64,000 bases of DNA, from the NCBI RefSeq assembly GCF_000152705.1, contig NZ_CH672413.1, forward strand, positions 1,835,978-1,899,977, written 5' to 3'. Numbering within the stretch: position 1 is the stretch's first letter; each line of letters opens with the position of its first letter. Below the pieces are notes generated by a model. That model worked only from the letters and a program-made list of their open reading frames with translations, searched no databases and was not told where the DNA came from. The DNA comes from Janibacter sp. HTCC2649. Lineage in GTDB: Bacteria; Actinomycetota; Actinomycetes; Actinomycetales; Dermatophilaceae. Of this stretch, positions 1 to 64,000 are shown in pieces. The translations under genes were made by a program, and so were the position numbers.

Positions 1-465
1 GTCGGTGGCCTTGCGCAGGGCCTGCTCGATGCGGTCGACGCATTCGGTGACCCAGCCCTGACGCTCGTCGAGGGCGACCTGGTTGTCGTGGTCGTTGCCC
101 GTGTCGATGTCCGGGCCCATGTCGGAGACCGTGCCATCGGCCGAGATGCTCAGCTGGTGCAGCGTGGCGAATTCCTGGGCCGCGTCCACGGCCTGTTCCA
201 CGCCGCGCACTCCGTCCGCGGCGTCACACACTGCGGTGTATGCCGCAGAGACCTCCGCGACCAGGTCCTTGAGGTCTTGGGTGACGTTCGTCAGCCTGGT
301 GCGCGATGCCTGCGACGCGTCACCGTGCCACTGCTTCGGAAGGCCCATCGTTTCGAGCTCGTCGGCGAGGTCGAGCATGGACCGCCGAGCCTCGCGGAGG
401 GTGGTCTCGGCCGTGTCGAGAGTGGCCGGTGACCACTGCTTGATGTTGCCCCAAGTGAGAGCCAC
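1..465 (-). CDS. WXG100-like N-terminal part of a larger protein, cut by window edge
   Basis: The reading frame runs open to the window edge, so only about 155 N-terminal residues are visible. It starts at a GTG one base after the stop of the upstream gene at 467. The sequence is alpha-helical, with a Trp-His-Gly turn (QWHGDAS) between two helices. That is the layout of WXG100/type VII secretion substrates and of the N-terminal domains of actinobacterial alpha/beta hydrolases that carry such a module. The rest of the protein is outside the window, so the catalytic domain, if any, is unknown. Pairing with a small helical protein upstream resembles the gene pair at 37932-39385. The function as a secreted effector is inference. 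Confidence 0.6.
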   Translation of the reverse strand, partial: MALTWGNIKQWSPATLDTAETTLREARRSMLDLADELETMGLPKQWHGDASQASRTRLTNVTQDLKDLVAEVSAAYTAVCDAADGVRGVEQAVDAAQEFATLHQLSISADGTVSDMGPDIDTGNDHDNQVALDERQGWVTECVDRIEQALRKATD

Positions 466-466
466 G

Positions 467-769
467 TCAGTCGTTCTTCTTCGTCGCGGGTGCGAAGGCT
501 GCACGGGCAGCCTCGTCGTCGAGCTCGTACTGCGTGGCGTTGGTGTCGAGGTTTGTGCCGTAGGCCTTGGCGGCCTTGGCCCAGTCGGTCAGCTCGGTGG
601 CCCAACCGCTGCTCACCCGCTGCATCGCGCTCACACTCGAGGCCCCGGGCATGGCGGCCTCGGCCCCCGTGAGGGCGTCACCCGGAGCGACCTTGGCGAT
701 CTGCGTCGCGGCCGACCGCGCGGCTTTCGCGGAGTCGCGCAGGTCCTTGATCTGTACGTCGTACGACAT
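467..769 (-). CDS. small helical WXG100-like / ESX-associated protein
   Basis: A 100-residue, Ala-rich, predicted all-helical protein starting MSYDVQIKDL. The ATG at 769 is preceded by a strong GGGGAGGGG ribosome-binding site, so the longer open frame upstream to 841 is probably not translated. A Trp-Ala-Thr in the middle (SSGWATELTDW) could be the turn of a WXG-type helical hairpin, but the canonical WXG is not exact. It lies one base upstream of the WXG-like gene at 1-465 and the two are surely co-transcribed. Such pairs usually form heterodimers for type VII export; that role is inferred from size, fold and pairing. Confidence 0.6.
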   Translation of the reverse strand: MSYDVQIKDLRDSAKAARSAATQIAKVAPGDALTGAEAAMPGASSVSAMQRVSSGWATELTDWAKAAKAYGTNLDTNATQYELDDEAARAAFAPATKKND

Positions 770-868
770 GAGCACCCCTCCCCTGTGACCGCCCATGCTG
801 TCAGTGACGACAGGGGTTCGCCATGGGGAGGGCTCCCCCACAAAAGGGAGGGTGATCGATGTTGGACA

Positions 869-907
869 CCTCCATAGCCTTGCCTTACCTCGGTCGTACG
901 ATGGAGG
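869..907. promoter_or_regulatory. inverted repeat upstream of korA
   Basis: CCTCCAT at 869-875 and ATGGAGG at 901-907 form a perfect 7-bp inverted repeat with a 25-base spacer. It lies in the divergent region between the WXG-like genes and korA, 56 bases before the korA ATG. It may be an operator or a leader hairpin. No regulator can be named and no convincing -35/-10 pair was found. Confidence 0.3.
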
Positions 908-963
908 GACACGTCGGGGTCACGACGAAGCGTCCCGACTGACAGCTCTCGAGTCAGGTGTTC

Positions 964-2832
964 ATGTCCAGCAAGACCGTCCAGAAGCTCGATCGCGTGG
1001 TCATCCGATTTGCTGGCGACTCCGGCGACGGGATGCAGCTCACCGGAGACCGGTTCACCTCCGAGACGGCCGCGATGGGCAATGACCTCTCTACCCTGCC
1101 CAACTTCCCCGCCGAGATCCGCGCACCCCAGGGGACGCTGCCCGGGGTGTCGAGCTTCCAGCTCCACTTCGCCGACCACGAGGTCCTCACCCCTGGCGAC
1201 GCTCCCGACGTCCTCGTCGCGATGAACCCCGCGGCCCTCATGGCCAACCTCGGGGACGTCCCGCGTGGCGCGACGATCATCATCAACACCGACGAGTTCT
1301 CCAAGCGCGCCCTCGCCAAGGTCGGCTATGCCGAGAACCCGGTCGAGGACGGCTCGCTCGAGTCCTTCCACGTCCACGCGGTGCCGCTCACGTCGATCAC
1401 CGTGGACGCGCTGGCAAAGTTCGAGGGACTCACCCGCAAGGAGAAGGAGCGCGCCAAGAACATGTTCGCGCTCGGCCTGCTGTCGTGGATGTACACGCGT
1501 CCCACGACCGGCACGGAGTCCTTCCTCACCAAGAAGTTCGGCGCTCACCCCGAGATTCTCGAGGCCAACCTCACCGCCCTGCGGGCCGGCTGGAACTACG
1601 GCGAGACGACCGAGGACTTCGCCTCGAGCTACGAGATCGCACCAGCCGTCATGCCGCCGGGCACCTACCGGAACATCACCGGCAACACCGCGCTCGCACA
1701 CGGTCTCGTCGCCGCCGCGCACCAGGCGAAGCTGCCGCTCGTGCTCGGGTCCTACCCGATCACCCCTGCCTCCGACATCCTCCACGCGCTGTCGGCCCTC
1801 AAGCGCCACAACATCACGACGATGCAGGCCGAGGACGAGATCGCCGGCATCGGCATCGCCCTCGGTGCGAGCTTCGGCGGCGCCATCGGCGTGACGACGA
1901 CCTCCGGTCCCGGTGTCGCACTGAAGTCCGAGATGATCGGCCTCGCCGTGTCGCTCGAGCTGCCGCTGATCATCGTCGACGTCCAGCGAGGCGGGCCGTC
2001 GACCGGCCTGCCGACCAAGACCGAGCAGTCCGACCTGCTCCAGGCGATGTTCGGTCGCAACGGCGAGTCGCCCGTCCCGATCATCGCGCCGGCAACCCCG
2101 TCCGACTGCTTCGACGCCGCCTTCGAAGCGGTCCGGATCGCGACGGCATACCGGACTCCCGTCTTCCTGCTGAGCGACGGCTACCTCGCCAACGGCTCCG
2201 AGCCCTGGGCCGTCCCGGAGGTGGCCGACCTGCCCGACCTCACCGTCGAGTTCGCGTCGGCGCCCAATGGTGTCGACGACAAGGGGGAGCCGGTCTTCCA
2301 CCCGTTCCTGCGCGACCCCGAGACGCTCGCCCGCCCGTGGGCGGTCCCCGGTACCCCCGGTCTTGAGCACCGCATCGGTGGCATCGAGAAGGCCGACATC
2401 ACCGGCAACATCTCCTACGACCCCGACAACCACGACAAGATGACCCGCCTGCGCGCCGCCAAGATCGCGGGCATCGCGGGCATCCCCGATGTCGTCGTCG
2501 AGGATCCTTCGGATGATGCCCGATTGCTCGTTCTCGGTTGGGGCTCGACGCAGGGCCCGATTGCCGCTGCTGTCAGGGCTGTTCGCAACGCCGGCCACCA
2601 CGTCGCGTCGGCGCACCTGCGCAACCTCAACCCGTTCCCTGCCAACCTCGGTGAGGTCCTTCGGTCCTACGATCGCGTCGTCGTCCCCGAGATGAACCTC
2701 GGCCAGCTGTCGATGCTGTTGAGGGCCCAGTTCCTCGTCGACGTCCGCCCCCACACGTCGGTGCGTGGTCTGCCGTTCTCCACGGTCGACCTTGCCGACG
2801 TCATCCTCACCCACCTCGAGGAGATCAAGTGA
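964..2832 (+). CDS. korA: 2-oxoglutarate:ferredoxin oxidoreductase, alpha subunit
   Basis: A 622-residue fused gamma-alpha subunit of the 2-oxoacid:acceptor oxidoreductase family. The N-terminal gamma part carries the nucleotide/CoA-side signature FAGDSGDGMQLTG. The alpha part begins around residue 225 (LGSYPITPASDI) and contains TTSGPGVALKSEM, typical of the pyrimidine-binding domain. With KorB it oxidatively decarboxylates 2-oxoglutarate to succinyl-CoA, reducing ferredoxin, as the TCA-cycle route of many actinobacteria. The ATG at 964 is chosen over a GTG at 958 because the AGG at 955-957 is well spaced for it. The stop overlaps the korB start by four bases (GTGA), indicating translational coupling and a stoichiometric complex. 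Substrate choice (2-oxoglutarate rather than pyruvate) rests on overall resemblance. Confidence 0.9.
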   Translation: MSSKTVQKLDRVVIRFAGDSGDGMQLTGDRFTSETAAMGNDLSTLPNFPAEIRAPQGTLPGVSSFQLHFADHEVLTPGDAPDVLVAMNPAALMANLGDVPRGATIIINTDEFSKRALAKVGYAENPVEDGSLESFHVHAVPLTSITVDALAKFEGLTRKEKERAKNMFALGLLSWMYTRPTTGTESFLTKKFGAHPEILEANLTALRAGWNYGETTEDFASSYEIAPAVMPPGTYRNITGNTALAHGLVAAAHQAKLPLVLGSYPITPASDILHALSALKRHNITTMQAEDEIAGIGIALGASFGGAIGVTTTSGPGVALKSEMIGLAVSLELPLIIVDVQRGGPSTGLPTKTEQSDLLQAMFGRNGESPVPIIAPATPSDCFDAAFEAVRIATAYRTPVFLLSDGYLANGSEPWAVPEVADLPDLTVEFASAPNGVDDKGEPVFHPFLRDPETLARPWAVPGTPGLEHRIGGIEKADITGNISYDPDNHDKMTRLRAAKIAGIAGIPDVVVEDPSDDARLLVLGWGSTQGPIAAAVRAVRNAGHHVASAHLRNLNPFPANLGEVLRSYDRVVVPEMNLGQLSMLLRAQFLVDVRPHTSVRGLPFSTVDLADVILTHLEEIK

Positions 2833-3920
2833 CCACCACGAACGGTGCAGCCGCTCGCCCGAGCGGACTGGCCGGCATACCCCTGCTTGCTCCTGACGCT
2901 GCGAAGCAGACGAAGAAGGAGTTCACCTCCGACCAGGAGGTGCGGTGGTGTCCGGGTTGCGGTGACTACGCGATCCTCGCGGCGGTGCAGTCGTTCCTGC
3001 CGGAGCTGGGGCTCAAGCGCGAGAACATCACGTTCGTCTCCGGGATCGGGTGCTCGTCGCGCTTCCCGTACTACCTCGACACCTATGGCATGCACTCGAT
3101 CCACGGCCGTGCGCCGTCCATCGCGACGGGGCTCGCGACGTCGCGACCGGACCAGAACGTGTGGGTCGTGACCGGTGATGGTGACGCGCTGTCGATCGGC
3201 GGCAACCACCTCATCCACGCCCTGCGCCGCAACGTCAACATGACGATCCTGCTGTTCAACAACGAGATCTACGGGTTGACCAAGGGTCAGTACTCCCCCA
3301 CCTCGCGCATCGGTCAGGTCACCAAGTCCACGCCGATGGGGTCGGTTGACCAGCCGTTCAACCCGGTGTCGCTGGCGCTCGGTGCCGAGGCGACCTTCGT
3401 GGCTCGCACGACCGACACCGACCGCAAGCACCTCACGGGCATCCTGCGAGCGGCCGCCGAACACCGCGGCACCTCGCTCGTCGAGATCTACCAGAACTGC
3501 CCGATCTTCAACGACGGCGCGTTCGACCTCATCAAGGACCGCACCCAGCAGGAGGCGCGCCTCGTGCACCTCATCGACGGTGAGCCGGTGCAGGTCGGGC
3601 CCGAGGACGACCGAAAAACGTTGGTGCGTATGCCGGGTGGTCGCCTCGAGTTCGTTCCTGCCGCTGACGCTGTGGGTGCGGATGTGGTGGTGCACGACGC
3701 TGGTGCGGAGGACCCGAGCCAGGCGTTCGCTCTGTCGCGGCTCGACTCGCCCGAGATGACACACGTGCCGATGGGCATCTTCCGTTCGGTGTCGCGTCCG
3801 ACCTACGACGACGGTGTGCGGGCGCAGGTTCAGGCAGCCATCGACACCGCGGGTGGTCCGGCGTCGGACGACGACCTGGGGGCGCTGCTTCGCGGTCGCG
3901 ACACCTGGACCGTCGCGTGA
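2829..3920 (+). CDS. korB: 2-oxoglutarate:ferredoxin oxidoreductase, beta subunit
   Basis: A 363-residue TPP- and iron-sulfur-binding beta subunit. It shows the cluster-binding motif WCPGCGDYAI near residue 40, the TPP/Mg site GDGDALSIGGNHL near residue 118, and FNNEIYGLTKGQ after it. It starts at a GTG overlapping the korA stop. KorB holds the thiamine diphosphate where 2-oxoglutarate is decarboxylated and passes electrons to ferredoxin. The C-terminal 100 residues are more variable and end with an arm (LLRGRDTWTVA) usual for the actinobacterial form. Location beside menaquinone and complex I genes is consistent with central respiratory metabolism. Confidence 0.92.
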   Translation: MTTTNGAAARPSGLAGIPLLAPDAAKQTKKEFTSDQEVRWCPGCGDYAILAAVQSFLPELGLKRENITFVSGIGCSSRFPYYLDTYGMHSIHGRAPSIATGLATSRPDQNVWVVTGDGDALSIGGNHLIHALRRNVNMTILLFNNEIYGLTKGQYSPTSRIGQVTKSTPMGSVDQPFNPVSLALGAEATFVARTTDTDRKHLTGILRAAAEHRGTSLVEIYQNCPIFNDGAFDLIKDRTQQEARLVHLIDGEPVQVGPEDDRKTLVRMPGGRLEFVPAADAVGADVVVHDAGAEDPSQAFALSRLDSPEMTHVPMGIFRSVSRPTYDDGVRAQVQAAIDTAGGPASDDDLGALLRGRDTWTVA

Positions 3921-3924
3921 GTGC

Positions 3925-4884
3925 ATGAGTCCACCCCTCGCGGGTGATGCCGCCGAACTCAGGCGAGGCACCGCGTATGCCTTTGCTGCCTATGGCATCT
4001 GGGGCCTCTTCCCCCTCTACTTCCATGCGCTCGAGCCGTCCGGTGCGTTCGAGATCCTGGCGCACCGGATCCTGTGGACCTTGCTGTTCTGTGTGGTCGT
4101 GCTCGTGGTGCGACGGGACTTCGGGTGGGTGGCCTCGGTCGTCCACCGGCCGAAGCTGCTCGCTGGGCTCACGCTCGCGGCGCTGCTCATCGCGGCGAAC
4201 TGGGTCGTCTATGTGCTCGCCGTCATCACGGGGCGAACGTATGCCGCCGCCCTGGGCTACTTCCTCAACCCGATCGTGACCGTGGGGCTGGGTGTCTTCG
4301 TCCTGCGCGAGCGGCTGCGACCGTTGCAATGGGCCGCGGTGACCGTGGGCGCGGTCGCGGCGGTCTATCTCACGGTGGCGGGCGGCGAGTTCCCGTGGAT
4401 CGCCGTGACGTTGGCGTTCTCTTTCGCGTTCTACGGGTTGGTGAAGAAGAAGGTCGGGGCGTCGCTGGACGCCATGCACTCGTTGACGGTCGAGACGTTG
4501 GTCTTGGCGCCCGTCGCGGTCGGTGTGCTGTTCTGGCTGGCCGCCAAGGGTTCGACGACCTTCGGTGGACACGGCGCGACGCACATGACGTTGCTCGTTG
4601 CTGCAGGTGTCGTGACGGCGATCCCGTTGCTGTTCTTTGCTGCTGCTGCCCGGCGCATCCCGCTCGTGACGATCGGGCTGATCCAGTTCCTCACGCCGAT
4701 GCTGCAACTGCTCATCGGTGTCGTACTCCTCGACGAGCACGTGACCGGCGCCCTGTGGGTCGGCTTCGGGATCGTCTGGATCGCCCTGCTGCTGTTGACC
4801 ATCGACTCGCTGCGCCAGGGCCAAACCAACCGCCGCAACAACCGCGCCGCGCGAGAGGGCGACCCGACCGAACCCTGCCCCTGA
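3925..4884 (+). CDS. rarD: EamA-family permease RarD
   Basis: A 319-residue, ten-helix membrane protein of the drug/metabolite transporter (EamA) superfamily. The opening segment GTAYAFAAYGIWGLFPLYF and the repeat-unit motif AHRILWTLLF are characteristic of RarD. The start at 3925 lies four bases after the korB stop; no clear Shine-Dalgarno is visible, so read-through from korB is likely. The substrate is unknown; RarD of other bacteria is annotated as a chloramphenicol-sensitivity protein without a proven transport reaction. A palindromic element sits 17 bases after the stop and may end the korAB-rarD transcript. Confidence 0.85.
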   Translation: MSPPLAGDAAELRRGTAYAFAAYGIWGLFPLYFHALEPSGAFEILAHRILWTLLFCVVVLVVRRDFGWVASVVHRPKLLAGLTLAALLIAANWVVYVLAVITGRTYAAALGYFLNPIVTVGLGVFVLRERLRPLQWAAVTVGAVAAVYLTVAGGEFPWIAVTLAFSFAFYGLVKKKVGASLDAMHSLTVETLVLAPVAVGVLFWLAAKGSTTFGGHGATHMTLLVAAGVVTAIPLLFFAAAARRIPLVTIGLIQFLTPMLQLLIGVVLLDEHVTGALWVGFGIVWIALLLLTIDSLRQGQTNRRNNRAAREGDPTEPCP

Positions 4885-5293: not shown

Positions 5294-6592
5294 TCAGGGG
5301 CCGAGGATGTGGGTCAGGTGGTCGTTGGTGAAGCGGCGGTCGGGGTCGACGCGGTCGCGGACCTGCAGCGCATCGCCGAATCGCGGATAGAGCCGCGCGA
5401 AGTCGTCCGCGCCGAGCGTGTGCAGCTTGCCCCAGTGCGGCCGGCCCAAATGCTCGCGCACGATCGCCTCGAACGCCGCGAACACTCCCCCGTCGTCCAT
5501 CCGGTGGTACTGATGCACTGCGACGTAGGCGTTTTCGCGTTCGTATGCCGTCGACAGCCACACGTCGTCGGCTCCCGTCGAGCGGACCTCGATGGGGAAG
5601 GGCAGCGTCACGTCGTGCGTGTCGATCCAGGTGCGCAACGCGGAGATGACGGCGGGCAGGGAAGCGCGCGGGACGGCATACTCGCTCTCTCGGAAGCGGA
5701 CATCGCGTGAGCTGCAGAAGACCTTCCACGACGTGTCGGTGTATTCCTTCGCACCGAGCACGCGGGCACTGACCTGGTTGAGGCTGGGGACGATGCCGGG
5801 CCGAAGCGAAGCGGCACGGTTGAGGGCGCCGAAGACCTTGTTGCTGAGGATGTCCTCGTCGAGTCGCTCGCGCCACGCCGGCTGCGGCTGACCGGGGTCG
5901 TCGTCCGAGACTCGTGAATTGCGCTTCAGCAGAACGCGATCCGTGTGCGGGAACCAGTGGAAGTCGACGTGGTCGTACTCTGCCACGAGCTGCTCATAGC
6001 CATCGATGACCTCGCCGAGCCGTCCTGGCGTCTCGAGCGCACGCAACCGGAAAGCGGGCACGCACTGGAGCTCGACCTCGGTGACCACACCGAACGCACC
6101 GAGCCCCACCCGAGCCGCCTGGAACAGCTCGGGGTCATGCGAATCATCCACGGAGACAACGGATCCGTCGGCCAACACCATTGACAGCCCGGTCACCGCA
6201 GCAGCGATGCCCTGGTGGCGCAGGCCGGTGCCATGCGTCCCGGTGGCGATGGCGCCCGCAATGCTCTGCCGGTCGATGTCACCGAGGTTCGGCAGCGCGA
6301 GGCCGATCCCATCGAGAATGGGGTTGAGGACGTGCAGCGGCGTCCCGCCAGCGACGCGCACTCGCTGGCGCGCACAGTCGATGCCCCGGATTCCGGACAG
6401 GTGGGTCAGCCGCAGAAGGGCCCCATCCGTGGCACACAGCGGCGTGAAGGAGTGGCCCGCACCGACGACCCGAACGCGCTCGCCACGGTCCGCCGAACGC
6501 TTCACGACATCAGCGGCCTCGTCGACCGAGCGGGGCTCGAGGACACGAGCCGGCGTCGCACTGACATTGCCGGCCCAGTTGCTCCAGGTCAT
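5294..6592 (-). CDS. FAD-linked aldonolactone oxidase (gulono/arabinono-1,4-lactone oxidase family)
   Basis: A 432-residue flavoprotein with an N-terminal PCMH-type FAD domain: VVGAGHSFTPL at residues 42-52 and ATGTHGTG at 116-123 line the flavin. The C-terminal ALO domain ends in the conserved HWGKLH region. Family members oxidise aldonolactones or sugar alcohols using O2 or another acceptor; the mycobacterial relative uses L-gulono-1,4-lactone with a dehydrogenase-like activity. The exact substrate here cannot be read from sequence. The ATG at 6592 overlaps the stop of the PLP-enzyme gene by four bases (ATGA), so the pair is translationally coupled. Confidence 0.85.
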   Translation of the reverse strand: MTWSNWAGNVSATPARVLEPRSVDEAADVVKRSADRGERVRVVGAGHSFTPLCATDGALLRLTHLSGIRGIDCARQRVRVAGGTPLHVLNPILDGIGLALPNLGDIDRQSIAGAIATGTHGTGLRHQGIAAAVTGLSMVLADGSVVSVDDSHDPELFQAARVGLGAFGVVTEVELQCVPAFRLRALETPGRLGEVIDGYEQLVAEYDHVDFHWFPHTDRVLLKRNSRVSDDDPGQPQPAWRERLDEDILSNKVFGALNRAASLRPGIVPSLNQVSARVLGAKEYTDTSWKVFCSSRDVRFRESEYAVPRASLPAVISALRTWIDTHDVTLPFPIEVRSTGADDVWLSTAYERENAYVAVHQYHRMDDGGVFAAFEAIVREHLGRPHWGKLHTLGADDFARLYPRFGDALQVRDRVDPDRRFTNDHLTHILGP

Positions 6593-7761
6593 CCGAAGTT
6601 CTGCCCTTCTCCGCGATAGCTCGGCACGGTCTCGACGAGCCGACCCTGCTGGACGAGGTGCACGTGGTCGAACCGTTCGAGCAGCTCCCCTGCCTTGGCC
6701 CCGCGCATCCACACGCGATCACCGAGAGCGAGCCCATCAGCGGCCGGCCCCCGCAGTGGAGTCTGCACCTCTCCGGCCGCCTCGGAGCGAATGAGCTTGA
6801 GGGCAGCTCCGATCGGGCTGGGAACCCGGGTCCAGCCCGGCTCGCCGCTGGCGACATAACCACCGCTGTATGCCGTGACGATCCCCTTCGCGGGGCGGCG
6901 CACCACCGGGAGGGCGTAGGTCATCGCGGGTCGGGGGGCGAAGTCGTCGTAGGCGTCGAAGAGGGTGGGCGCGTAGAGGCCGGAGCCGGCCGCGAACTCG
7001 GTGAGGCTGTCGGCGGCGGCGAGCCGTCCGAGGCTCCCGGTGCCGCCACCGTTGACGAAGTCGAGCTCGGTGAGTGCCCGGACCGCCTCGACGAGGGGTC
7101 CACGCCGCTCGGCAAGATCGTCGAGCGAGCGCTTCTTGAGGGTCTTGAGGTGGGGCCCGCGGTCAGGCAGTCCGGCGACCTGGGCGTCGTAGAACATGAT
7201 CCCGACGACGCGCAGTCCGGCATCGAGAGCGGCCCGGGTGACGGCGAGCGCGTCTGCGGGCGTGCGCAGGGGCGAGCGCCGCACGCCGAGGTGAACGCGG
7301 CCGATGCGCAGAGAGCAGTCGACGTCGAGAGCGACGCGCAGACCACTGTGCGGGCCGAGCAGGTCTGCCAGGAAGCGCACCTGCTCGACACTGTCGATGG
7401 CGACGCTGATCTCGTCGCGCAGGTGCTCGTCCGCCACGACCGTTTGCAACCACTCGCGATCCACGCTGGGGTAGGCCACGAAGACGTCCGTGAATCCCTG
7501 GCGCACGAGCCACACGGCCTCGGGCACGGCATACGCCATCACGCCGGCGAAGCCGGGTCGGTCGAGGACGCGACGCAACAGGCTCCGACAACGAACCGAC
7601 TTGCTCGCGACCCGGATGGGCCGACCGGCGGCGCGGCGGACGAGGTCGTCGGCGTTCGCGTCGAAGGCGTCCTGGTCGACGGTGACGAGAGGTGCCGGAA
7701 GCCCGGCGGTCGCCGACTCGAGGGCATCGATGTCGACGAAGGGTTCGTCGCTGCGGCTCAT
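6589..7761 (-). CDS. PLP-dependent fold-III amino acid deaminase/aldolase
   Basis: A 390-residue protein with the alanine racemase N-terminal TIM-barrel fold. The Schiff-base lysine is K54 in RVASKSVR, and the domain arrangement fits the D-threonine aldolase/D-serine dehydratase group. Glycine-rich VNGGGTGSLG binds the PLP phosphate. In mycobacteria a similar protein is encoded next to a gulonolactone oxidase, so the pairing is conserved, but the reaction is not established. It starts at an ATG overlapping the regulator gene stop (ATGA) and ends overlapping the oxidase start. All three genes therefore form one tightly coupled operon. Confidence 0.8.
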   Translation of the reverse strand: MSRSDEPFVDIDALESATAGLPAPLVTVDQDAFDANADDLVRRAAGRPIRVASKSVRCRSLLRRVLDRPGFAGVMAYAVPEAVWLVRQGFTDVFVAYPSVDREWLQTVVADEHLRDEISVAIDSVEQVRFLADLLGPHSGLRVALDVDCSLRIGRVHLGVRRSPLRTPADALAVTRAALDAGLRVVGIMFYDAQVAGLPDRGPHLKTLKKRSLDDLAERRGPLVEAVRALTELDFVNGGGTGSLGRLAAADSLTEFAAGSGLYAPTLFDAYDDFAPRPAMTYALPVVRRPAKGIVTAYSGGYVASGEPGWTRVPSPIGAALKLIRSEAAGEVQTPLRGPAADGLALGDRVWMRGAKAGELLERFDHVHLVQQGRLVETVPSYRGEGQNFG

Positions 7762-8759
7762 GCGATCCTGCTCTCGGTGGCGCCGCGGAAGGTGCGGCGA
7801 TAGGCCTGCGGTGAGACCCCTAGCGTGGCAGCACAGTGCTTGCGCAGGGAGGCACCCGTGCCAAGTCCGGCCCGTGTCGCGATGACGTCGACGGTGAGGT
7901 CGGTGGTCTCGAGGAGGTGCTGGGCGTGGCGCACCCGCTGCTGCGTCACCCACGCCGCCGGAGTCAGGCCGGTCTCGTGGCGGAAGCGCCGGGCAAAAGT
8001 GCGTTCGCTCATGCGAGCACGCCGGGCAAGGTCGGGGACGGAGAGATCGGCGTCGAGGTGCGCCATGGCCCAGGCCCGCGTGCTCGACGTCGAGGCATCG
8101 TCCATGACCGGCACGGGACGATCGATGAACTGTGCCTGGCCACCGTCACGCCACGGCGGAACGACGCAGTAGCGGGCTACCTCATTGGCCACGGTGGCGC
8201 CGTGGTCACGGCGGATGAGGTGCAGACACAGGTCCACTCCCGCGGAGAGGCCCGCCGAGGTGAGGACATCCCCGTCGTCAACAAAGAGCACATCCTCGTC
8301 GAGATCGACCTGCGGGAAGAGGCGGGCAAAGTCCTCCGTGTTCTGCCAGTGGGTCGTGGCCCGGCGGCCATCGAGAAGACCGGCAGCTGCGAGGACGTAG
8401 GCGCCGGTGCAGATCGACACGATGCGCGTCCCCGGACGAATCTGCGACAGGGCCCGCTCGAGAGCATCGTCCAGGACGCCCTCATGGCGTGGCCCCGGGG
8501 CGCGAGTACCGGGCACGATCACCGTGTCGGCCAACGCCAGGAGCGACGAATCGCCGTGTGGCACAACGGCATACCCCGTCGTCGTCTGCACGGGGCCGCC
8601 GTCGAGCGAGGCCATCTCGACGCTGTACAACGGCAGGCCGTCCGTGCCACTGCGGGCGGCGCCCAGGACTGCGGACGGGATGGTCGCGTCGTAGCCGATG
8701 AGTGGCTCGAGCAGCAGGACGACGACCTGGTGGCGGGAGGGGACGCCTGGAGTGCGCAT
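7758..8759 (-). CDS. GlxA-family AraC-type transcriptional regulator
   Basis: A 333-residue regulator with an N-terminal DJ-1/PfpI-like domain (RHQVVVLLLEPLIGYDA; nucleophile-elbow region SICTGAYVLAAAGLLDG) and a C-terminal AraC DNA-binding domain. The first helix-turn-helix is LSVPDLARRARMSERTFARR and the second is TVDVIATRAGLGTGASLRKH. The shortest start (8759) is used since the fold begins nine residues later; ATGs at 8777 and 8801 are possible. Its gene leads the operon with the PLP enzyme and lactone oxidase and is divergent from the MFS gene at 8831, so it probably controls one or both. Confidence 0.8.
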   Translation of the reverse strand: MRTPGVPSRHQVVVLLLEPLIGYDATIPSAVLGAARSGTDGLPLYSVEMASLDGGPVQTTTGYAVVPHGDSSLLALADTVIVPGTRAPGPRHEGVLDDALERALSQIRPGTRIVSICTGAYVLAAAGLLDGRRATTHWQNTEDFARLFPQVDLDEDVLFVDDGDVLTSAGLSAGVDLCLHLIRRDHGATVANEVARYCVVPPWRDGGQAQFIDRPVPVMDDASTSSTRAWAMAHLDADLSVPDLARRARMSERTFARRFRHETGLTPAAWVTQQRVRHAQHLLETTDLTVDVIATRAGLGTGASLRKHCAATLGVSPQAYRRTFRGATESRIA

Positions 8760-28931: not shown

Positions 28932-28956
28932 CACGGCATACACGGCAAGCACGGCA
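28932..28956. repeat. three CACGGCA units in 9-bp register
   Basis: CACGGCA occurs at 28932-28938, 28941-28947 and 28950-28956, an exact 9-bp period, filling much of the nuoA-nuoB gap right after the nuoA stop. The first unit overlaps one of the octamers (28934-28941). Confidence 0.7.
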
Positions 28957-44917: not shown

Positions 44918-45130
44918 CGTACACCTGTTCGCCGACACTCGGCAGGTTATCCACACTCCAATTCGCCTGCAGCACAGCGGAACTCGTCATCTTTCAGCGT
45001 CCGCAAACATGGCTGAACCGGCCACTCGCCCCACGACTGGCCACCCACACAAAGAGTCCACCAGAAGCCTCTGACACCCGCCGACGGAACGGCCCGCGAG
45101 ACAGGTGACCACACGGCATACGCTGAAGGT

Positions 45131-51085: not shown

Positions 51086-52603
<1,518 letters not shown>

Positions 52604-55361: not shown

Positions 55362-56349
55362 TGGGCCAGCAGGACCTGACCCGCTCACGCCACCACTGGA
55401 CGCGTTCAGGTGTCGCAGCACATCGGTCCAGGAGGTCGGGGTCTGCGGTGACCCGCCGCACCTGCAGGGCGCCACCCACCGGAGTCAACGAGTCGGTCGT
55501 GACGTCGCCGTCGAGCAGCGCCACGGTGCCCAGGCCGCAGGCGTGGTCGAGCCGCGGCAACGCGGCGGCAAGGGCCACGCCGGCGGCCATGCCCACGCTC
55601 GTGTCGAGGGCGGACGACACCACCGCCGGCAGTCCGCACTCGGCGACGACCTCGAGGGCGCGGCGCACTCCCCCGAGGGGCGCCGCCTTGATGACGATGA
55701 GGTCGGCTGCCTCGAGATCGCGTACGCGCATCGGGTCCTCTGCCTTGCGAATCGACTCATCGGCCGCGACCGGGATGCCGATTCCCCTGCGCGCCAAGGC
55801 AATTCGCAGATCTCGCAGCTCCTCGACGCTCGCGCACGGCTGCTCGGCGTATTCGATGTCGTATGCCGCGAGCCGACCGAGCACGTCCGTCGCAGTGGCG
55901 ACGTCCCAGGCCCCGTTGGCGTCGATCCTGACCCGAGCGGAAGGTCCCATGGCATCGCGAACCGCAGCGACGCGGCATACGTCATCGTCTGTTGTCTGTC
56001 CGCGTTCGGCGACCTTGACCTTGGCAGTCGTGGTGCCCGGGAAGCGTTGCAGCACACCGGGAACGGCGTCGGGGGTGACGGCTGGCACGGTGGCGTTGAC
56101 GGGTACGGAGTTCCGGACCGCCACCGGCCAGCCGTGCCATGCAGCCTCGACCGCAGCCGCCAACCACCGACTGGCCTCGGGCGGCGTGTACTCGAGGAAG
56201 GGGCCGAACTCGCCCCACCCCGCGGGTCCTTCGATGAGCGCTACCTCCCGCTCGGTCACTCCGCGGAACTTCACCCGCATGGGGATCGACACGACACGCA
56301 ACGTGGCGAGGACGTCGTCGAGCGAGGGCTCGGTCAGCGGTGGGGCCAT
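55345..56349 (-). CDS. menC: o-succinylbenzoate synthase
   Basis: A 334-residue enolase-superfamily enzyme that dehydrates SHCHC to o-succinylbenzoate. The catalytic lysine pair and metal ligands can be placed in TTAKVKVAERG, VRIDANGAWDV, IEYAEQPC and PVAADESIRKAED, with LIVIKAAPLGGVRRAL holding the second lysine. The final codons overlap the vapB operator. The start is at an ATG about 95 bases from the divergent RHH gene. Confidence 0.93.
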   Translation of the reverse strand: MAPPLTEPSLDDVLATLRVVSIPMRVKFRGVTEREVALIEGPAGWGEFGPFLEYTPPEASRWLAAAVEAAWHGWPVAVRNSVPVNATVPAVTPDAVPGVLQRFPGTTTAKVKVAERGQTTDDDVCRVAAVRDAMGPSARVRIDANGAWDVATATDVLGRLAAYDIEYAEQPCASVEELRDLRIALARRGIGIPVAADESIRKAEDPMRVRDLEAADLIVIKAAPLGGVRRALEVVAECGLPAVVSSALDTSVGMAAGVALAAALPRLDHACGLGTVALLDGDVTTDSLTPVGGALQVRRVTADPDLLDRCAATPERVQWWRERVRSCWPIMTSS

Positions 56350-59558: not shown

Positions 59559-60014
59559 TCAGCCGGACCCGCCGATGTCGACCTCGTAGGCCTCATAGAT
59601 GAGGTCGGCACCGCGCTGGCGGTGACGGATGATGCGTCCGACCAGCTCGGTGGCCGTTTCCCGGTGCGCCGCAACGGCTTCCGCGCTCTCGAGCCCTTCG
59701 TCGCGTTCCCCCAACAGTCGCTGGACGATCTCGACGAAGTCGAGGTGCTCGTCCATCTGGACCTTGGAGACGGAGGCGAGGCGAGGCGCTCGAGCCACGG
59801 CATCGGCATACAGACCGCCGGGCTCCTCCGTGATGGCGCGGTGGTCGCGCAGGTCGTGCGCGAGCTCGGTCAGGGCCGCCCGGACCCGCCGCCGCCACAG
59901 CACCCCCAATCCCAGAGGCAGGGCCAGCGCAGCATCGAGCGCGGCCAGTGACTCACCCAGCTCGGCTCGGTGCGCCCGGACACGTTCGAGGTATGCCGCG
60001 AACTCAGGGTCCAT
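59559..60014 (-). CDS. hypothetical helical protein
   Basis: A 151-residue, mostly helical protein from the ATG at 60014. Several His and Glu residues spaced along the helices (AHDLRDHRAITE; EHLDFVEIVQ; RIIRHRQRGADLIYEAYEVD) might suggest a hemerythrin-like bundle, but the full metal pattern is not clear. No family is claimed. It is divergent from menE, with 46 bases between. Confidence 0.65.
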   Translation of the reverse strand: MDPEFAAYLERVRAHRAELGESLAALDAALALPLGLGVLWRRRVRAALTELAHDLRDHRAITEEPGGLYADAVARAPRLASVSKVQMDEHLDFVEIVQRLLGERDEGLESAEAVAAHRETATELVGRIIRHRQRGADLIYEAYEVDIGGSG

Positions 60015-60060: not shown

Positions 60061-61239
60061 ATGAGGATCGAGCCGCTCGCCGTGCCCGCGGGCGCCGGCG
60101 TGCTCGACGTCCTGCCGCGTCTCGCGCGTGCTCTCGAGGGCGGTCACCCCATTGCCCCGTATGCCGCGGGCTCACCTCCGCCAGTCCTCCCACCTCACGA
60201 TGTGGCCGGCCTCCCGCGCGACCTCGCCGTCGTCGTGGGGACGTCAGGGTCGACCGGCACTCCGAAGCTGGCCATGCTCGGGACGCGAGCACTGCGCGCC
60301 AGCATCGAGTCCACTCACGCCCGGCTCAGTGGCCCGGGTCAGTGGTTGCTGACCATGCCGGGCCACCACATCGCTGGCCTCCAGGTCCTCCTCCGATCAC
60401 TCGTCGCAGGCACCACCCCCCACGCCATGGACCTCAGCGGAGGCTTCACCCCGACAACCTGGACCAGCAGTGTCGACGCGCTGCCCACGACGGACGCCCC
60501 CACCTACGTCTCCCTCGTCCCCACCCAGCTCACTCGCCTCCTCGCCGACGAAGCCGCCACGGAGCGGCTCGCGAGGTTCGCTGCGGTCCTCATCGGAGGC
60601 GCCGCGACCCACCCTGACCTTCTCGCACGGGCAGCAGATGCAGGCGTCACCGCGGTCACGACCTATGGCATGAGCGAGACCGCCGGAGGCTGCGTCTATG
60701 ACGGCCTACCCCTCGATGGCACCGAGGTCCTGCTCGACCAGGACGGCCGCATCCACCTCGCCGGCGACACCCTCGCCCACGGCTACCTCGGCGACCCCGC
60801 CCGCACTGCCGCTGCCTTCCCGGCCCTTCCCGGCCGAGGGCACGTCTTTCGCACCGACGACATCGGACACCTCGGCGACGACGGGCGGCTCCACGTCGAC
60901 GGCCGCATCGACGACCTCGTGAACACCGGCGGCCTCAAGGTCTCGCCGCGTCTCGTCGAAGAAGCCGTGGCCCGGCTCGACGGCGTCGCCGAGGCCGTCG
61001 CTGTCGGGATCCCCGACCCCGAGTGGGGCGAGGCCGTCGCCGTCGCCATCACCCGGGACGCGAACTGCCCACCCGGCCACCCCACAACGGTGAGCGCACT
61101 GCGCGAGCAGCTGCGCGGCATACTCCCGGATCACGCTCTGCCACGAGCGGTTCGAGAGGTCCCCGCGGTCCCCGTTCGAGGCCCCGGCAAGCCCGATCGT
61201 GCGGCCATCCGAGCACTGTTCGAGAGCGTGGGAGAATAG
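60061..61239 (+). CDS. menE: o-succinylbenzoate-CoA ligase
   Basis: A 392-residue short-form AMP-forming ligase. The ATP-binding P-loop is GTSGSTGTPKLAML; TYGMSETAGGCVYDGLP and TDDIGHLGDDGRLHVDGR are the adenylate motifs; the C-terminal catalytic lysine lies in GPGKPDRAAI. It activates o-succinylbenzoate to its CoA thioester before MenB. The short N-terminal domain is normal for actinobacterial MenE. The next gene follows after four bases. Confidence 0.92.
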   Translation: MRIEPLAVPAGAGVLDVLPRLARALEGGHPIAPYAAGSPPPVLPPHDVAGLPRDLAVVVGTSGSTGTPKLAMLGTRALRASIESTHARLSGPGQWLLTMPGHHIAGLQVLLRSLVAGTTPHAMDLSGGFTPTTWTSSVDALPTTDAPTYVSLVPTQLTRLLADEAATERLARFAAVLIGGAATHPDLLARAADAGVTAVTTYGMSETAGGCVYDGLPLDGTEVLLDQDGRIHLAGDTLAHGYLGDPARTAAAFPALPGRGHVFRTDDIGHLGDDGRLHVDGRIDDLVNTGGLKVSPRLVEEAVARLDGVAEAVAVGIPDPEWGEAVAVAITRDANCPPGHPTTVSALREQLRGILPDHALPRAVREVPAVPVRGPGKPDRAAIRALFESVGE

Positions 61240-61501: not shown

Positions 61502-62386
61502 ATGGCCACGTTTCAACAGTGGGTCGCCGGTGCGCGCCCTCGCACCCTCTTTGCTGCCATTGCTCCCGTCGTCATCGGCACGGCCGCCGCTGCCCAGCAC
61601 TCGGAGCCGAGCTACGCGATCGCGATCCTCGCGGCCGTCGTCTCGCTGGCTCTCCAGGTCGGCGTGAACTACGCCAACGACTACTCCGACGGCATCCGGG
61701 GCACCGATGACGCGCGCGTCGGGCCGGTGCGCCTCGTCGGGCAGAAGCTCGCCCGCCCCGAGAGCGTCAAGGCCGCGGCGTTCCTGACGTTCGGGTTCGC
61801 GGCGATCACCGGGCTCGCGCTCGTCGCCATCGCCGAGGCGTGGTGGCTCCTGCCTCTCGGCGGCGCGTCGATCATCGCCGCGTGGAAGTACACCGGCGGC
61901 GACAAGCCCTACGGCTACCGCGGCCTCGGCGAGGTGTTCGTCTTCGTCTTCTTCGGGCTCGTCGCCACGCTCGGCACCATGTATGCGCAGGTCGGCACCC
62001 TCTCGTGGTTCGGCCTCGCTGCGGCGGTCGGCGTCGGCGCCATCGCGTCCGCGATCCTCGTCGTCAACAACCTGCGCGACATCCCCAGCGACACCGAGTC
62101 GGGCAAGAACACCCTCGCGGTGCGGCTCGGTGACCGTGGCACCCGTCGCCTCTGGCTCGGCCTCATCCTCGTCAGCGTGATCGCTGTCGGCGCCATGGCG
62201 GTCTGGGACATCTGGGCGCTGCTCGGCCTGCTCGCTGTCGCGGCCATCGCGGGCGCCGTCAAGGTCGTCATGGGTGGTGCGCAGGGTCGTAGCCTCGTGC
62301 CCGTGCTGGGCTCCACCGGCAAGTACGAGCTCGTGTATGCCGTGGCCGTCTTCGTCGGCATCCTCACCTCCCGCGCCCTCAACTGA
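61502..62386 (+). CDS. menA: 1,4-dihydroxy-2-naphthoate polyprenyltransferase
   Basis: A 294-residue, eight- to nine-helix prenyltransferase that attaches the long isoprenoid tail to the naphthoate ring in the membrane. The first Asp-rich motif is NYANDYSDGIRGTD; the second is NNLRDIPSDTESGK. It follows the small membrane protein by nine bases and completes the menE-menA operon. A 42-bp palindrome begins 22 bases after the stop. Confidence 0.94.
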   Translation: MATFQQWVAGARPRTLFAAIAPVVIGTAAAAQHSEPSYAIAILAAVVSLALQVGVNYANDYSDGIRGTDDARVGPVRLVGQKLARPESVKAAAFLTFGFAAITGLALVAIAEAWWLLPLGGASIIAAWKYTGGDKPYGYRGLGEVFVFVFFGLVATLGTMYAQVGTLSWFGLAAAVGVGAIASAILVVNNLRDIPSDTESGKNTLAVRLGDRGTRRLWLGLILVSVIAVGAMAVWDIWALLGLLAVAAIAGAVKVVMGGAQGRSLVPVLGSTGKYELVYAVAVFVGILTSRALN

Positions 62387-62408: not shown

Positions 62409-62450
62409 TGTCCCGCGGAACGCGTGCCCTAGGCCGCGTCCGACAGGACA
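62409..62450. repeat. 42-bp CTAG-centred palindromic element, copy C
   Basis: TGTCC at 62409 and GGACA ending at 62450 bound a 42-bp copy of the palindrome family; flanking TA/TA extends the arms. It shares ACGCGTGCCCTAG with the 4902 copy. The central CTAG supplies the TAG stop of the convergent DUF559 gene (62429-62431). Confidence 0.6.
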
Positions 62451-63349: not shown

Positions 63350-63451
63350 GGCGTGAGCCTCGCTCGAGCGCTCACTTGTCGCCAGACGCGCACGCGAATC
63401 TGTGGACCACCAGTCCCAGTCAGAAGCCCTGTGGACGATGAGAAACTGCTC

Positions 63452-63493
63452 TGTCCAGCCAAACGAGCGCTCTAGCCCGCGTCTGACTGGACA
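63452..63493. repeat. 42-bp CTAG-centred palindromic element, copy B
   Basis: Arms TGTCCAG (63452-63458) and CTGGACA (63487-63493) with a CTAG inside. In reverse complement it matches the 4902 copy over its first 16 bases. It begins 25 bases after the stop of the DUF4229 gene, read on that gene's strand. Confidence 0.65.
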
Positions 63494-63518
63494 TACCTGG
63501 CGGCAGCCCCAAGGGGCG

Positions 63519-63824
63519 TCAGCGGAAGTCGGAGTCGGAGCTCGTGTTGCGGTGGGGGGTCTCGATCTCGGTGTCCTCGGCGAGCTCGTCGCCACTGGAC
63601 TCGCGCTTGCGCACGATGCGCTGGTCGACGCGCTCGGCGATGGCGGCCGAGGCCTTCTGACGGAACGGCTTGAGCACGACCGCCGAGATGGCCATCGATG
63701 CGACGGCAGCGATCACCACGGCCAGCAACTGCTCCTCGCCGTCACGCAGGCCGAGCAGCCAGGCCGCCGACAGGCAGCCGATGAAGATCATCGTCCTCAG
63801 GATGAGGTAGCGCACCATGGCCAT
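63519..63824 (-). CDS. DUF4229 membrane protein
   Basis: A 101-residue protein with two N-terminal helices (YLILRTMIFIGCLSAAWLLG; LLAVVIAAVASMAISAVVLK) and a charged, disordered C-terminal tail, matching DUF4229. It starts one base after the ccsB stop and is surely co-transcribed. Function unknown. Confidence 0.75.
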   Translation of the reverse strand: MAMVRYLILRTMIFIGCLSAAWLLGLRDGEEQLLAVVIAAVASMAISAVVLKPFRQKASAAIAERVDQRIVRKRESSGDELAEDTEIETPHRNTSSDSDFR

Positions 63825-63825
63825 G

Positions 63826-64000
63826 TCAGAGGCCCGAGTAGGAGTGCTGGCCGACGAAGTACACGTTGACGACGGCGTAGTTGATGATGATGCAGGCGAA
63901 CCCGGCCACCGCGACCCACGACGCCGACTGACGGCGCCAACCGCGAGTCACCCGGGCGTGCAGGTATGCCGCATAGACGACCCAGATGATGAACGTCCAG
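63826..64000 (-). CDS. ccsB: cytochrome c biogenesis protein CcsB, C-terminal end
   Basis: Only the last 57 residues are inside the window. They read WTFIIWVVYAAYLHARV and, after a loop, GFACIIINYAVVNVYFVGQH, then HSYSGL and stop. A tryptophan-rich helix followed by a final helix and the HSY-x-GL ending are typical of CcsB/ResC, the heme-handling subunit of system II cytochrome c maturation. The start lies outside the window. Confidence 0.75.
   Translation of the reverse strand, partial: WTFIIWVVYAAYLHARVTRGWRRQSASWVAVAGFACIIINYAVVNVYFVGQHSYSGL

What the first reader, a model, noticed from the sequence alone, without database searches (positions are those of the whole stretch)
238..63971. 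Octamer GTATGCCG/CGGCATAC is strongly over-represented, independent of strand and reading frame
I count 52 copies, about one per 1.2 kb, against two to three expected from base composition alone (rough estimate at about 68% G+C). All but two lie in genes (exceptions 28934, 45114). The word is used in different phases: Tyr-Ala as TAT-GCC (7527, 60159), Ala-Tyr as GCA-TAC (2144, 6868), Gly-Ile as GGC-ATA (11119, 21002, 35923, 39941, 43594, 50040, 54168, 61116), Arg-Met-Pro (3628), Cys-Met-Pro (39894) and Val-Cys-Arg (55973). It thus repeatedly uses codons that are rare here (ATA, GTA, TGT, TAT, GCA). The eighth base is nearly fixed: one GTATGCCT at about 3975. Orientation is 29 to 23, so it is not a strongly polar KOPS/Chi-type word. 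Density resembles DNA-uptake or methylation/recognition words. I know of no described function for it.
Basis: seen in the sequence. Interest (0 to 1): 0.8.

Follow-up and report, generated by a model that had tools for sequence, protein, structure and literature searches.

The report
Strand-read DNA word across Knoellia genomes
A soil bacterium carries one eight-letter DNA word about three thousand times, kept at regular intervals on each DNA strand separately and replaced by one-letter variants in some related genera, which looks like a "self-DNA" label similar to the DNA-uptake words of Haemophilus and Neisseria but in a bacterial group where I found none described.

Summary
The window has 52 GTATGCCG/CGGCATAC (29+/23-); the 4.24-Mb genome has 2,982, against 59 for the word read backwards. 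The organism is a Knoellia or close kin. The word is rich in 9 of 9 genus genomes and 12 of 27 other family genera sampled, and in none of 241 class members outside the family. Three relatives without it carry 2,216 to 3,949 copies of a one-letter variant, and a fourth 1,359. Codon choice bends to the word. Between congeners 39 of 48 copies stay in place, against 36% of control octamers. A one-sided flank reaches about +40 to +53, and close inverted pairs form terminator-like hairpins. Same-strand copies avoid each other over about 1.5 kb while opposite-strand copies do not. Two more genomes repeat this; dialect genome G030 and E. coli Chi do not. Best reading: a strand-specifically read self-DNA word, most likely a DNA-uptake sequence served by Tad pili and ComEA/ComEC. 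The reader protein is not identified.

The parts
238..245 (+). GTATGCCG
   Evidence: exact match
2144..2151 (-). GTATGCCG
   Evidence: exact match; Ala-Tyr phase in ORF 958-2832
2873..2880 (-). GTATGCCG
   Evidence: exact match
3628..3635 (+). GTATGCCG
   Evidence: exact match; Arg-Met-Pro phase
4239..4246 (+). GTATGCCG
   Evidence: exact match
5543..5550 (+). GTATGCCG
   Evidence: exact match
5674..5681 (-). GTATGCCG
   Evidence: exact match
6868..6875 (+). GTATGCCG
   Evidence: exact match
7527..7534 (-). GTATGCCG
   Evidence: exact match
8567..8574 (-). GTATGCCG
   Evidence: exact match
11119..11126 (-). GTATGCCG
   Evidence: exact match; Gly-Ile phase in ilvA
12502..12509 (+). GTATGCCG
   Evidence: exact match
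13736..13743 (-). GTATGCCG
   Evidence: exact match
16255..16262 (+). GTATGCCG
   Evidence: exact match
17833..17840 (+). GTATGCCG
   Evidence: exact match
19757..19764 (-). GTATGCCG
   Evidence: exact match
21002..21009 (+). GTATGCCG
   Evidence: exact match; Gly-Ile phase
22270..22277 (-). GTATGCCG
   Evidence: exact match; inside nuoG
24468..24475 (-). GTATGCCG
   Evidence: exact match; inside nuoF
26081..26088 (-). GTATGCCG
   Evidence: exact match; inside nuoE
28027..28034 (+). GTATGCCG
   Evidence: exact match
28934..28941 (-). GTATGCCG
   Evidence: exact match; outside called genes
30680..30687 (+). GTATGCCG
   Evidence: exact match
31556..31563 (+). GTATGCCG
   Evidence: exact match
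33400..33407 (+). GTATGCCG
   Evidence: exact match
35193..35200 (-). GTATGCCG
   Evidence: exact match
35923..35930 (+). GTATGCCG
   Evidence: exact match
37366..37373 (-). GTATGCCG
   Evidence: exact match
39800..39807 (-). GTATGCCG
   Evidence: exact match
39894..39901 (-). GTATGCCG
   Evidence: exact match; divergent pair with 39941
39941..39948 (+). GTATGCCG
   Evidence: exact match; divergent pair with 39894
43594..43601 (+). GTATGCCG
   Evidence: exact match; Gly-Ile phase
45114..45121 (-). GTATGCCG
   Evidence: exact match; outside called genes
45460..45467 (+). GTATGCCG
   Evidence: exact match
46764..46771 (-). GTATGCCG
   Evidence: exact match
46942..46949 (+). GTATGCCG
   Evidence: exact match
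47546..47553 (+). GTATGCCG
   Evidence: exact match
49253..49260 (+). GTATGCCG
   Evidence: exact match
50040..50047 (+). GTATGCCG
   Evidence: exact match; Gly-Ile phase
50622..50629 (-). GTATGCCG
   Evidence: exact match
51278..51285 (+). GTATGCCG
   Evidence: exact match
52914..52921 (+). GTATGCCG
   Evidence: exact match
54168..54175 (+). GTATGCCG
   Evidence: exact match; Gly-Ile phase
54261..54268 (-). GTATGCCG
   Evidence: exact match
55861..55868 (+). GTATGCCG
   Evidence: exact match
55973..55980 (-). GTATGCCG
   Evidence: exact match; Val-Cys-Arg phase
59804..59811 (-). GTATGCCG
   Evidence: exact match
59991..59998 (+). GTATGCCG
   Evidence: exact match
60159..60166 (+). GTATGCCG
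   Evidence: exact match; Tyr-Ala phase in menE-like gene
61116..61123 (-). GTATGCCG
   Evidence: exact match; Gly-Ile phase
62335..62342 (+). GTATGCCG
   Evidence: exact match
63964..63971 (+). GTATGCCG
   Evidence: exact match

Best explanation
GTATGCCG is the core of a roughly 60-base self-DNA element (A-rich from about -12 to -5; core 0 to 7; T/C-patterned flank, mostly G-poor from +13 on, to about +40 to +53) that a DNA-reading machine recognises strand-specifically. The most likely machine is natural transformation. By this reading a pilus-borne or ComEA-linked receptor, working with the Tad/Flp pilus and the ComEA/ComEC channel that the genome encodes, prefers DNA carrying the word. Incoming kin DNA with the word is imported and recombined, so the word spreads and is kept by uptake bias; genera whose receptor changed specificity carry a one-letter dialect. 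SHOWN: genome-wide enrichment, family restriction in the genomes searched, dialects, codon bending, conservation in place, extended context, hairpin pairs, island depletion, and same-strand exclusion independent of the other strand. INFERRED: that a protein reads it, that the process is DNA uptake, and that reading happens on one strand (for example on the imported strand).
For: Density (2,982 in 4.24 Mb, 0.7/kb) is like known uptake words (1,465 USS cores, average spacing ~1,000 bp, in H. influenzae; PMC7811141, passages). Orientations are equal. One-letter dialects: GGATGCCG 3,816 and 3,949 copies in G024 and G033 against 260-976 in 33 other family genomes (G009, 1,336, is between); GTACGCCG 2,216 in G030 and 1,359 in G031 against 93-590 in 33 others (G026, 752, is between), like DUS dialects in Neisseriaceae (PMC3630211, passages). 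AT-type flank, as USS has AT-rich flanking segments (PMC7811141). Opposite close pairs form terminator-like hairpins (-43 to -50 kcal/mol in the 4 folded), as USS pairs do (PMC7811141). Depletion in a probable acquired island (5, 0 and 2 copies per 20 kb against a mean of 14.6). Conservation in place 39/48 against 36%. ComEA next to ComEC, a full Tad cluster and a second T2SSE locus in this genome; Tad pili and ComEC serve transformation in the actinobacterium Micrococcus luteus (PMC4322843, passages). Post hoc: 3 of the 9 family genomes with none of the three words show a doubtful uptake part (G017 ComEA with an internal stop, G022 ComEA in two pieces; G014 no T2SSE over the cut-off); I saw no such fault listed for the other 27.
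Against: (1) Same-strand copies exclude each other (196 pairs under 1.5 kb, 324 expected) but opposite-strand copies do not (375 seen, 354 expected). A receptor indifferent to orientation, as reported for H. influenzae (PMC1939737, passages), should make both kinds exclude. (2) Uptake genes do not separate word carriers from others: ComEC and ComEA matches in all 9 word-free family genomes, T2SSE over the cut-off in 8 of 9. (3) PilM of type IVa pili is absent from this genus (0 of 9). (4) Two narrow searches found no report of transformation: Intrasporangiaceae + natural transformation, Knoellia + natural competence. (5) Near-miss words are barely enriched (884 against 818), unlike kingDUS, where one-mismatch copies add 21% (PMC3630211). 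(6) G030 shows no same-strand exclusion (73 seen, 69 expected), and G033 no clear excess of close inverted pairs (15 seen, 11 expected). (7) The GTACGCCG dialect is the weaker case: two genomes of another family in the order have 834 and 900 copies. (8) Whole-genome strand balance of GGATGCCG in G024 is not tight (1,966/1,850).
Confidence: 0.5

Rival explanations
1. Chi-like regulatory word of a helicase-nuclease, most likely AdnAB: the enzyme entering at a break reads one strand and changes behaviour at a correctly oriented word, so each strand needs its own regularly spaced copies.
For: It predicts independent even spacing on the two strands, which is what is seen. Two neighbouring PDDEXK_1 open frames of 1,137 and 1,051 aa lie 3 kb apart in this genome; that they are AdnA/AdnB is my inference. 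[quoted passage not shown]
Against: RecC (PF04257) is absent from all 9 genomes of the genus, so it is not the RecBCD/Chi pair. E. coli Chi, the known case, shows no same-strand exclusion (36 pairs under 1.5 kb seen, 32.1 expected; 147 sites in 600 kb, limited power) and is strongly oriented along the chromosome; this word is not (Spearman with GC skew 0.05, p=0.78). PDDEXK_1 matches occur in the word-free relatives too. A 40-50-base flank and hairpin pairs are not features I know of Chi (recall).
Confidence: 0.22
2. Another polar self-DNA marker: an unidentified DNA-scanning nuclease, translocase or single-strand factor (defence, repair or segregation) that spares or licenses DNA carrying the word on the strand it tracks.
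For: Strand independence, patchy presence and dialects within one family, and a sharp core with almost no near-miss enrichment.
Against: No candidate gene was found. Flank architecture and hairpin pairs are better known from uptake words.
Confidence: 0.18
3. HIP1-like or methylation-linked word kept by a methyltransferase or a mutation/repair bias rather than by a reader of self DNA.
For: Density and use in all codon phases resemble HIP1 of cyanobacteria (from memory). Each strand of the word contains adenine.
Against: The word is not palindromic (HIP1 is, from memory). A mutational bias would not give same-strand exclusion over 1.5 kb nor a 60-base flank, and two control words in the same DNA show no exclusion. 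Methylation itself was not tested.
Confidence: 0.06
4. By-product of codon usage, composition or repeats.
For: G+C-rich genomes have many frequent octamers; CGTCGTCG is as common in the window (56 against 52).
Against: A factor of 83 over an order-4 model with the word masked. Codon bias reverses at the word: TAT 187/210, ATA 57/127, GCA 136/200 in context, against 532/3,922, 48/9,023 and 5/313 out of context.
Confidence: 0.01

Closest known systems
USS of Pasteurellaceae (AAGTGCGGT and the Apl variant)
   Same: Short sharp core, ~1 per kb, both orientations, AT-rich flanks, inverted pairs as terminators, a genomic island with few words (PMC7811141, passages; PMC2346458, part 1 of 3 read).
   Different: Different word and phylum; strand-independent exclusion (not checked in USS); near-misses barely enriched; no PilM-type type IV pilus in the genus; no uptake experiment.
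DUS and its dialects in Neisseriaceae, read by ComP
   Same: Thousands of copies, dialects differing by single bases between genera, relatives that lack any word (PMC3630211, passages).
   Different: Word unrelated; reader unknown; host has Tad/Flp instead of type IVa pili; extended 3' flank.
Chi of RecBCD/AddAB
   Same: Non-palindromic octamer-size word; reading on one strand is implied by the spacing.
   Different: No replication polarity, no RecC in the genus, long flank, hairpin pairs; E. coli Chi lacks the same-strand exclusion.
HIP1 (GCGATCGC) of cyanobacteria (recalled)
   Same: Very frequent word in genes, patchy among relatives, function open.
   Different: HIP1 is palindromic; here the word is asymmetric and strands behave independently.
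KOPS/SRS words of FtsK/SpoIIIE (recalled)
   Same: Non-palindromic octamers.
   Different: Those are oriented along the replichore; here orientation is balanced overall (285/299 in 40 samples) and unrelated to GC skew.

Membership tests
DNA uptake sequence (DUS/USS) | Short word strongly over-represented genome-wide in both orientations | tested here: met
   2,982 copies, 1,486/1,496, control 59
DNA uptake sequence (DUS/USS) | Presence of the word enhances DNA uptake or transformation of that species | not testable with these tools
   needs an uptake or transformation assay
DNA uptake sequence (DUS/USS) | Host encodes a DNA uptake system | tested here: met
   ComEA and ComEC adjacent, one full Tad cluster and a second T2SSE locus; but also present in word-free relatives
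DNA uptake sequence (DUS/USS) | Cognate receptor (ComP-like pilin) identified | not tested
   no candidate could be singled out; PilM-type pili absent from the genus
DNA uptake sequence (DUS/USS) | Dialects among relatives | tested here: met
   GGATGCCG in G024 and G033, GTACGCCG in G030 and, more weakly, G031
DNA uptake sequence (DUS/USS) | Close inverted pairs acting as terminators | tested here: inconclusive
   pairs and hairpins present here, excess not clear in G033; termination itself not tested
DNA uptake sequence (DUS/USS) | Orientation-indifferent action | tested here: inconclusive
   uptake was not assayed; spacing here shows exclusion only between same-strand copies, and whether USS/DUS share this could not be checked
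Chi (RecBCD) | Host has RecBCD | tested here: not met
   PF04257 absent in 9 of 9 genus genomes
Chi (RecBCD) | Bias towards replication direction | tested here: not met
   no correlation with GC skew, 285/299 in 40 samples
Chi-like word of AdnAB | Enzyme changes activity at the word | not testable with these tools
   biochemistry needed; candidate frames present
KOPS/SRS | Replichore-oriented | tested here: not met
   origin and terminus were not located, GC skew used as proxy
HIP1 | Palindromic GCGATCGC | tested here: not met
   the word is asymmetric (sequence itself)
Methylated recognition word | Base modification at the word | not testable with these tools
   no methylome data

The most novel reading that the evidence does not exclude
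[quoted passage not shown] It would be neither a DUS/USS (orientation-indifferent, as far as reported) nor a Chi or KOPS (replication-oriented).
Probability: 0.35. Interest if true: 0.92.

Novelty: new variant of a known kind. Interest (0 to 1): 0.82.

Why it matters
Sequence-labelled self-DNA recognition in transformation is described, in the papers I saw, only for Pasteurellaceae and Neisseriaceae. A third, independent origin in Actinomycetota, with genera that kept, changed or lack the word, would let the old question of whether such words arise by selection or by uptake drive be tested comparatively.

Tried and rejected
Composition, codon and repeat artefact: rejected. Replication-polar word: rejected. 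RecBCD/Chi: rejected for this genus. Type IVa pilus (PilM) as a marker of word-carriers: only 2 of 36 family genomes match. ComEC (57 of 58), ComEA (56 of 58), T2SSE (57 of 58 over the cut-off) and PDDEXK_1 (57 of 58) as discriminators: near-universal. Exclusion caused by selection against direct repeats: not supported, because the control octamer CGAGGTCG in the same DNA shows none (447 same-strand pairs under 1.5 kb seen, about 418 expected), nor does GGATGCCG in this genome (130 sites). Exclusion acting per gene or transcript: rejected, since it holds within genes (69 seen, 146 expected) and between genes (192 seen, 272 expected; 100-1,500 bases). Exclusion as a general property of Chi: not seen in E. 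coli, 147 sites, limited power. A test on a Haemophilus or Neisseria genome failed for lack of access. Dialect search: of 8 word-poor genomes sampled at 100 kb each, G033 and G030 gave a clear one-letter dialect, G009 and G031 a weaker signal, and G010, G016, G018 and G021 none that I would call one. Whole-genome dialect counts were taken only for GGATGCCG and GTACGCCG. Literature: 643 papers hold the bare octamer; the 20 listed titles are unrelated. 0 papers for DNA uptake sequence + Actinobacteria + natural transformation + overrepresented; 0 for Intrasporangiaceae + natural transformation; 1 unrelated for Knoellia + natural competence. Searches (377 papers, 15 listed; 164 papers, 12 listed) listed no title on an actinobacterial uptake word. 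Karlin et al. 1996 on USS spacing is not held, so I cannot say whether strand-wise spacing was reported there.
Full report
WHAT WAS CLAIMED AND WHAT IS THERE. One search finds exactly these (29 and 23). Markov orders 1-3 expect 0.9-2.1 and order 4 expects 9.3. The window lies at C1:1835978-1899977 of a 4,235,068-base assembly that carries 1,486 + 1,496 copies; the word read backwards occurs 35 + 24 times. NuoD of the window is 93% identical to that of Knoellia locipacati and 90% to K. aerolata, so this is a Knoellia or very close kin (Actinomycetota).

A SHARP CORE THAT OVERRIDES CODON USAGE. Over 1.38 Mb of this genome (964 kb) and of a congener, G003 (420 kb), 930 copies are seen where 11.2 are expected with the word masked. 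The 24 one-letter variants together stand at 884 seen against 818 expected; some of them (GTAGGCCG, CTATGCCG, GTACGCCG, GGATGCCG) carry the flank described below more than random positions do, so a part of them may be decayed or weak sites. At synonymous positions the rare codon is chosen when it completes the word: Tyr TAT 187 of 210 in G_GCCG against 532 of 3,922 elsewhere; Ile ATA 57 of 127 in CGGC_C against 48 of 9,023 elsewhere and 0 of 345 in two one-letter-off contexts; Ala GCA 136 of 200 in CG_TAC against 5 of 313 in non-CG_TAC. Between this genome and G003 (64 kb aligned, 84.4% identity), 39 of 48 words stay in place, against 36% of 1,357 random octamers with five G/C; against K. locipacati 10 of 14 and against K. 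aerolata 9 of 14 (controls 37% and 36%).

WHO HAS IT. Of 58 relatives including the window's genome, all 9 of the genus are rich (1,971-3,277 copies). Of the 27 other genera sampled in the family, one genome each, 12 are rich (939-4,724), 3 intermediate (196-293) and 12 poor (11-95). None of 22 genomes of other families in the order is rich (maximum 167, control 184). In a class-wide draw of 246 genomes, 3 of 5 family members are rich and none of 241 others (maximum 386 in 7.5 Mb, control 176). Named genomes (38 tested, in part the same genomes as) that are rich include Knoellia, Humibacillus xanthopallidus, Terrabacter, Pedococcus, Flexivirga, Intrasporangium, Segeticoccus, Tetrasphaera, Ornithinimicrobium, Serinicoccus and Arsenicicoccus; Phycicoccus (2 genomes), Agilicoccus, Ornithinicoccus, Kineosporia, Streptomyces, Cellulomonas and Nocardioides are not.

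DIALECTS. In 100-kb samples of 8 word-poor relatives, G033 is full of GGATGCCG and G030 of GTACGCCG. Whole-genome counts: GGATGCCG 3,949 in G033 and 3,816 in G024, 1,336 in G009, 260-976 in the 33 other family genomes; GTACGCCG 2,216 in G030, 1,359 in G031, 752 in G026, 93-590 in the 33 others. In the 22 genomes of other families GGATGCCG ranges from 253 to 933 apart from G055 (1,548), and GTACGCCG from 65 to 900, so G031 and above all G026 are weak cases. Nine family genomes (G010, G014, G016, G017, G018, G021, G022, G027, G035) have none of the three at clear excess; I call them word-free. This is the pattern of DUS dialects in Neisseriaceae (PMC3630211, passages read).

A LONG ONE-SIDED FLANK. 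With a codon-phase-matched control and excluding copies with a neighbour within 80 bases (551 of 636 kept), base composition departs from background from -12 to about +42, with weaker signals at +46 to +53: A at -12 to -5, G at -2, T at +8, A and T depleted at +12, T at +13, +18/19, +24/25, +30-32 and +36/37, C at +16, +21, +27 and +33, G mostly depleted from +13 on. Profiles correlate between this genome and G003 at 0.93 (+8 to +30) and 0.83 (+30 to +60), and with 14 loci (2 of congeners, 12 of other genera) at 0.64 and 0.63. The baseline is not zero: the same correlation in regions taken to be outside the element is 0.35-0.50. T has its strongest period at 5.8 bases, 31% of the variance; no significance was computed. 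The GGATGCCG dialect shares A at -10 and -8, G at +12 and T at +8 and +18; the GTACGCCG dialect shares T at +18 and C at +33 but has A at +8.

HAIRPIN PAIRS. Opposite copies closer than 50 bases are in excess (29 seen, 12 expected). Of 31 opposite pairs under 60 bases, 19 lie outside called genes, 14 of them convergent, and several are perfect hairpins in which the word is part of the stem; four that I folded give -43 to -50 kcal/mol. G003 shows the excess too (10 seen, 4 expected), G033 not clearly (15 seen, 11 expected). USS pairs form terminators (PMC7811141, passages).

STRAND-INDEPENDENT EVEN SPACING. In 40 samples of 20 kb the density is uniform (variance/mean 1.07), weakly related to G+C (Spearman 0.32, p = 0.04) and unrelated to GC skew (0.05, p = 0.78). 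But strand balance is tighter than binomial: sum of (f-r)^2/n is 170/584 = 0.29. Over the 21 rich genomes, which are related and so not independent, the mean is 0.43 (p = 0.01); of the dialect genomes G024 is not tight (3.5), G033 is (0.006), G030 1.3, G031 0.17. The cause is visible in pair counts under 1.5 kb: same-strand 196 against 324 expected, convergent 185 against 177, divergent 190 against 177; of 595 neighbours 203 are same-strand and 392 opposite. G033 with its own dialect repeats this (196 against 305; opposite 326 against 327; neighbours 154/293), and so does G003 (70 against 110; opposite 136 against 121). The 14 short loci show a weaker trend (59 against 82; opposite 88 against 86). 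G030 (194 sites of GTACGCCG) does not show it (73 against 69), perhaps because many of its sites are background. Two control words in the same DNA show none. The effect acts within genes (69 against 146) and between genes (192 against 272). E. coli Chi (147 sites, 600 kb of K-12) shows none (36 against 32). So the two orientations behave as two separate, evenly spaced sets, which implies a reader that works on one strand or with polarity, in both directions along the chromosome.

FOREIGN DNA. A stretch at C1 ~140-220 kb with TadE/T2SSF/LysM/M23-SLT-NlpC genes and a copper/cation resistance block (10 proteins scanned, 3 without a match) carries 5, 0 and 2 copies in three 20-kb samples (L245, L246, L011), against a mean of 14.6. 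I call it a probable acquired island by gene content; its ends were not mapped.

WHICH MACHINE. ComEC (57 of 58), ComEA (56 of 58) and T2SSE ATPases (57 of 58 over the cut-off) are near-universal, so presence does not discriminate. Among the nine word-free genomes ComEA has an internal stop in G017 and lies in two pieces in G022, and G014 has only a T2SSE match below the cut-off; this was seen post hoc and may reflect assembly errors. PilM is missing from the genus. RecC is missing from the genus and present in 10 of the 36 family genomes, both word-rich and word-free. PDDEXK_1 proteins, among them frames of AdnAB length, are near-universal (57 of 58). In Micrococcus luteus, Tad/Flp pili and ComEC are needed for transformation (PMC4322843, passages). 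I therefore rank DNA uptake first (0.5). The strand-wise spacing is not what an orientation-indifferent receptor (H. influenzae, PMC1939737, passages) should produce, which keeps a Chi-like AdnAB word (0.22) and an unknown polar reader (0.18) alive.

LIMITS. Gene calls were a home-made codon model covering 83% of the DNA. All spacing work rests on samples (20-23% of this genome, 12% of G033, about 10% of G003 and G030). The expected pair counts assume uniform placement. Pooled flank scores treat sites as independent. Uptake, methylation, binding and termination were not testable. Papers were seen as passages, listings or part text, as stated.

Noticed in passing
24900-26153: NuoE in the window carries a C-terminal 'sunset' domain (NF051437), a domain that NCBIfam also knows on ribosomal proteins.
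   Followed up: no
G055 (another family of the order), whole genome: GGATGCCG occurs 1,548 times (774/774) against 184 for its reversed control; the other 21 genomes outside the family have 253-933: possibly an independent or distant dialect.
   Followed up: no
L047 and L050 (Actinomycetales and Intrasporangiaceae MAGs): GTATGCGG is over-represented (8 in 21 kb and 4 in 15 kb), a possible further dialect.
   Followed up: no
L042 (Flexivirga), L051 (Tetrasphaera australiensis): GTATGACG/GTATGGCG (and in L051 GTATGTCG, GTATGCGG) are enriched beside the word, suggesting a relaxed sixth position (counting G as first) there.
   Followed up: no
L043 (Tetrasphaera MAG), L037 (Humibacillus sp. 41_S55): L043 holds both GGATGCCG (12) and GTATGCCG (9); L037 has GGATGCCG 9 in 11 kb: a mixed genome and a further GGATGCCG carrier, from single loci only.
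   Followed up: no
G030, 100-kb sample (L160-L164): About 25-27 copies of each 10-mer of a longer repeat around CAGTTCGACGGTCACGG, unrelated to the word.
   Followed up: no
L245-L246-L011 (own genome C1 ~140-220 kb): Probable acquired island with pilus-like and cell-wall-hydrolase genes and copper/cation resistance, nearly free of the word.
   Followed up: partly
G017 and G022 comEA; G014 T2SSE: ComEA reads with an internal stop in G017 and in two pieces in G022, and G014 has only a sub-cut-off T2SSE match; all three are word-free. Sequencing or assembly error not excluded.
   Followed up: no
own genome C1, replication: Cumulative GC skew over the samples is weak and irregular, so origin and terminus were not located.
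   Followed up: no
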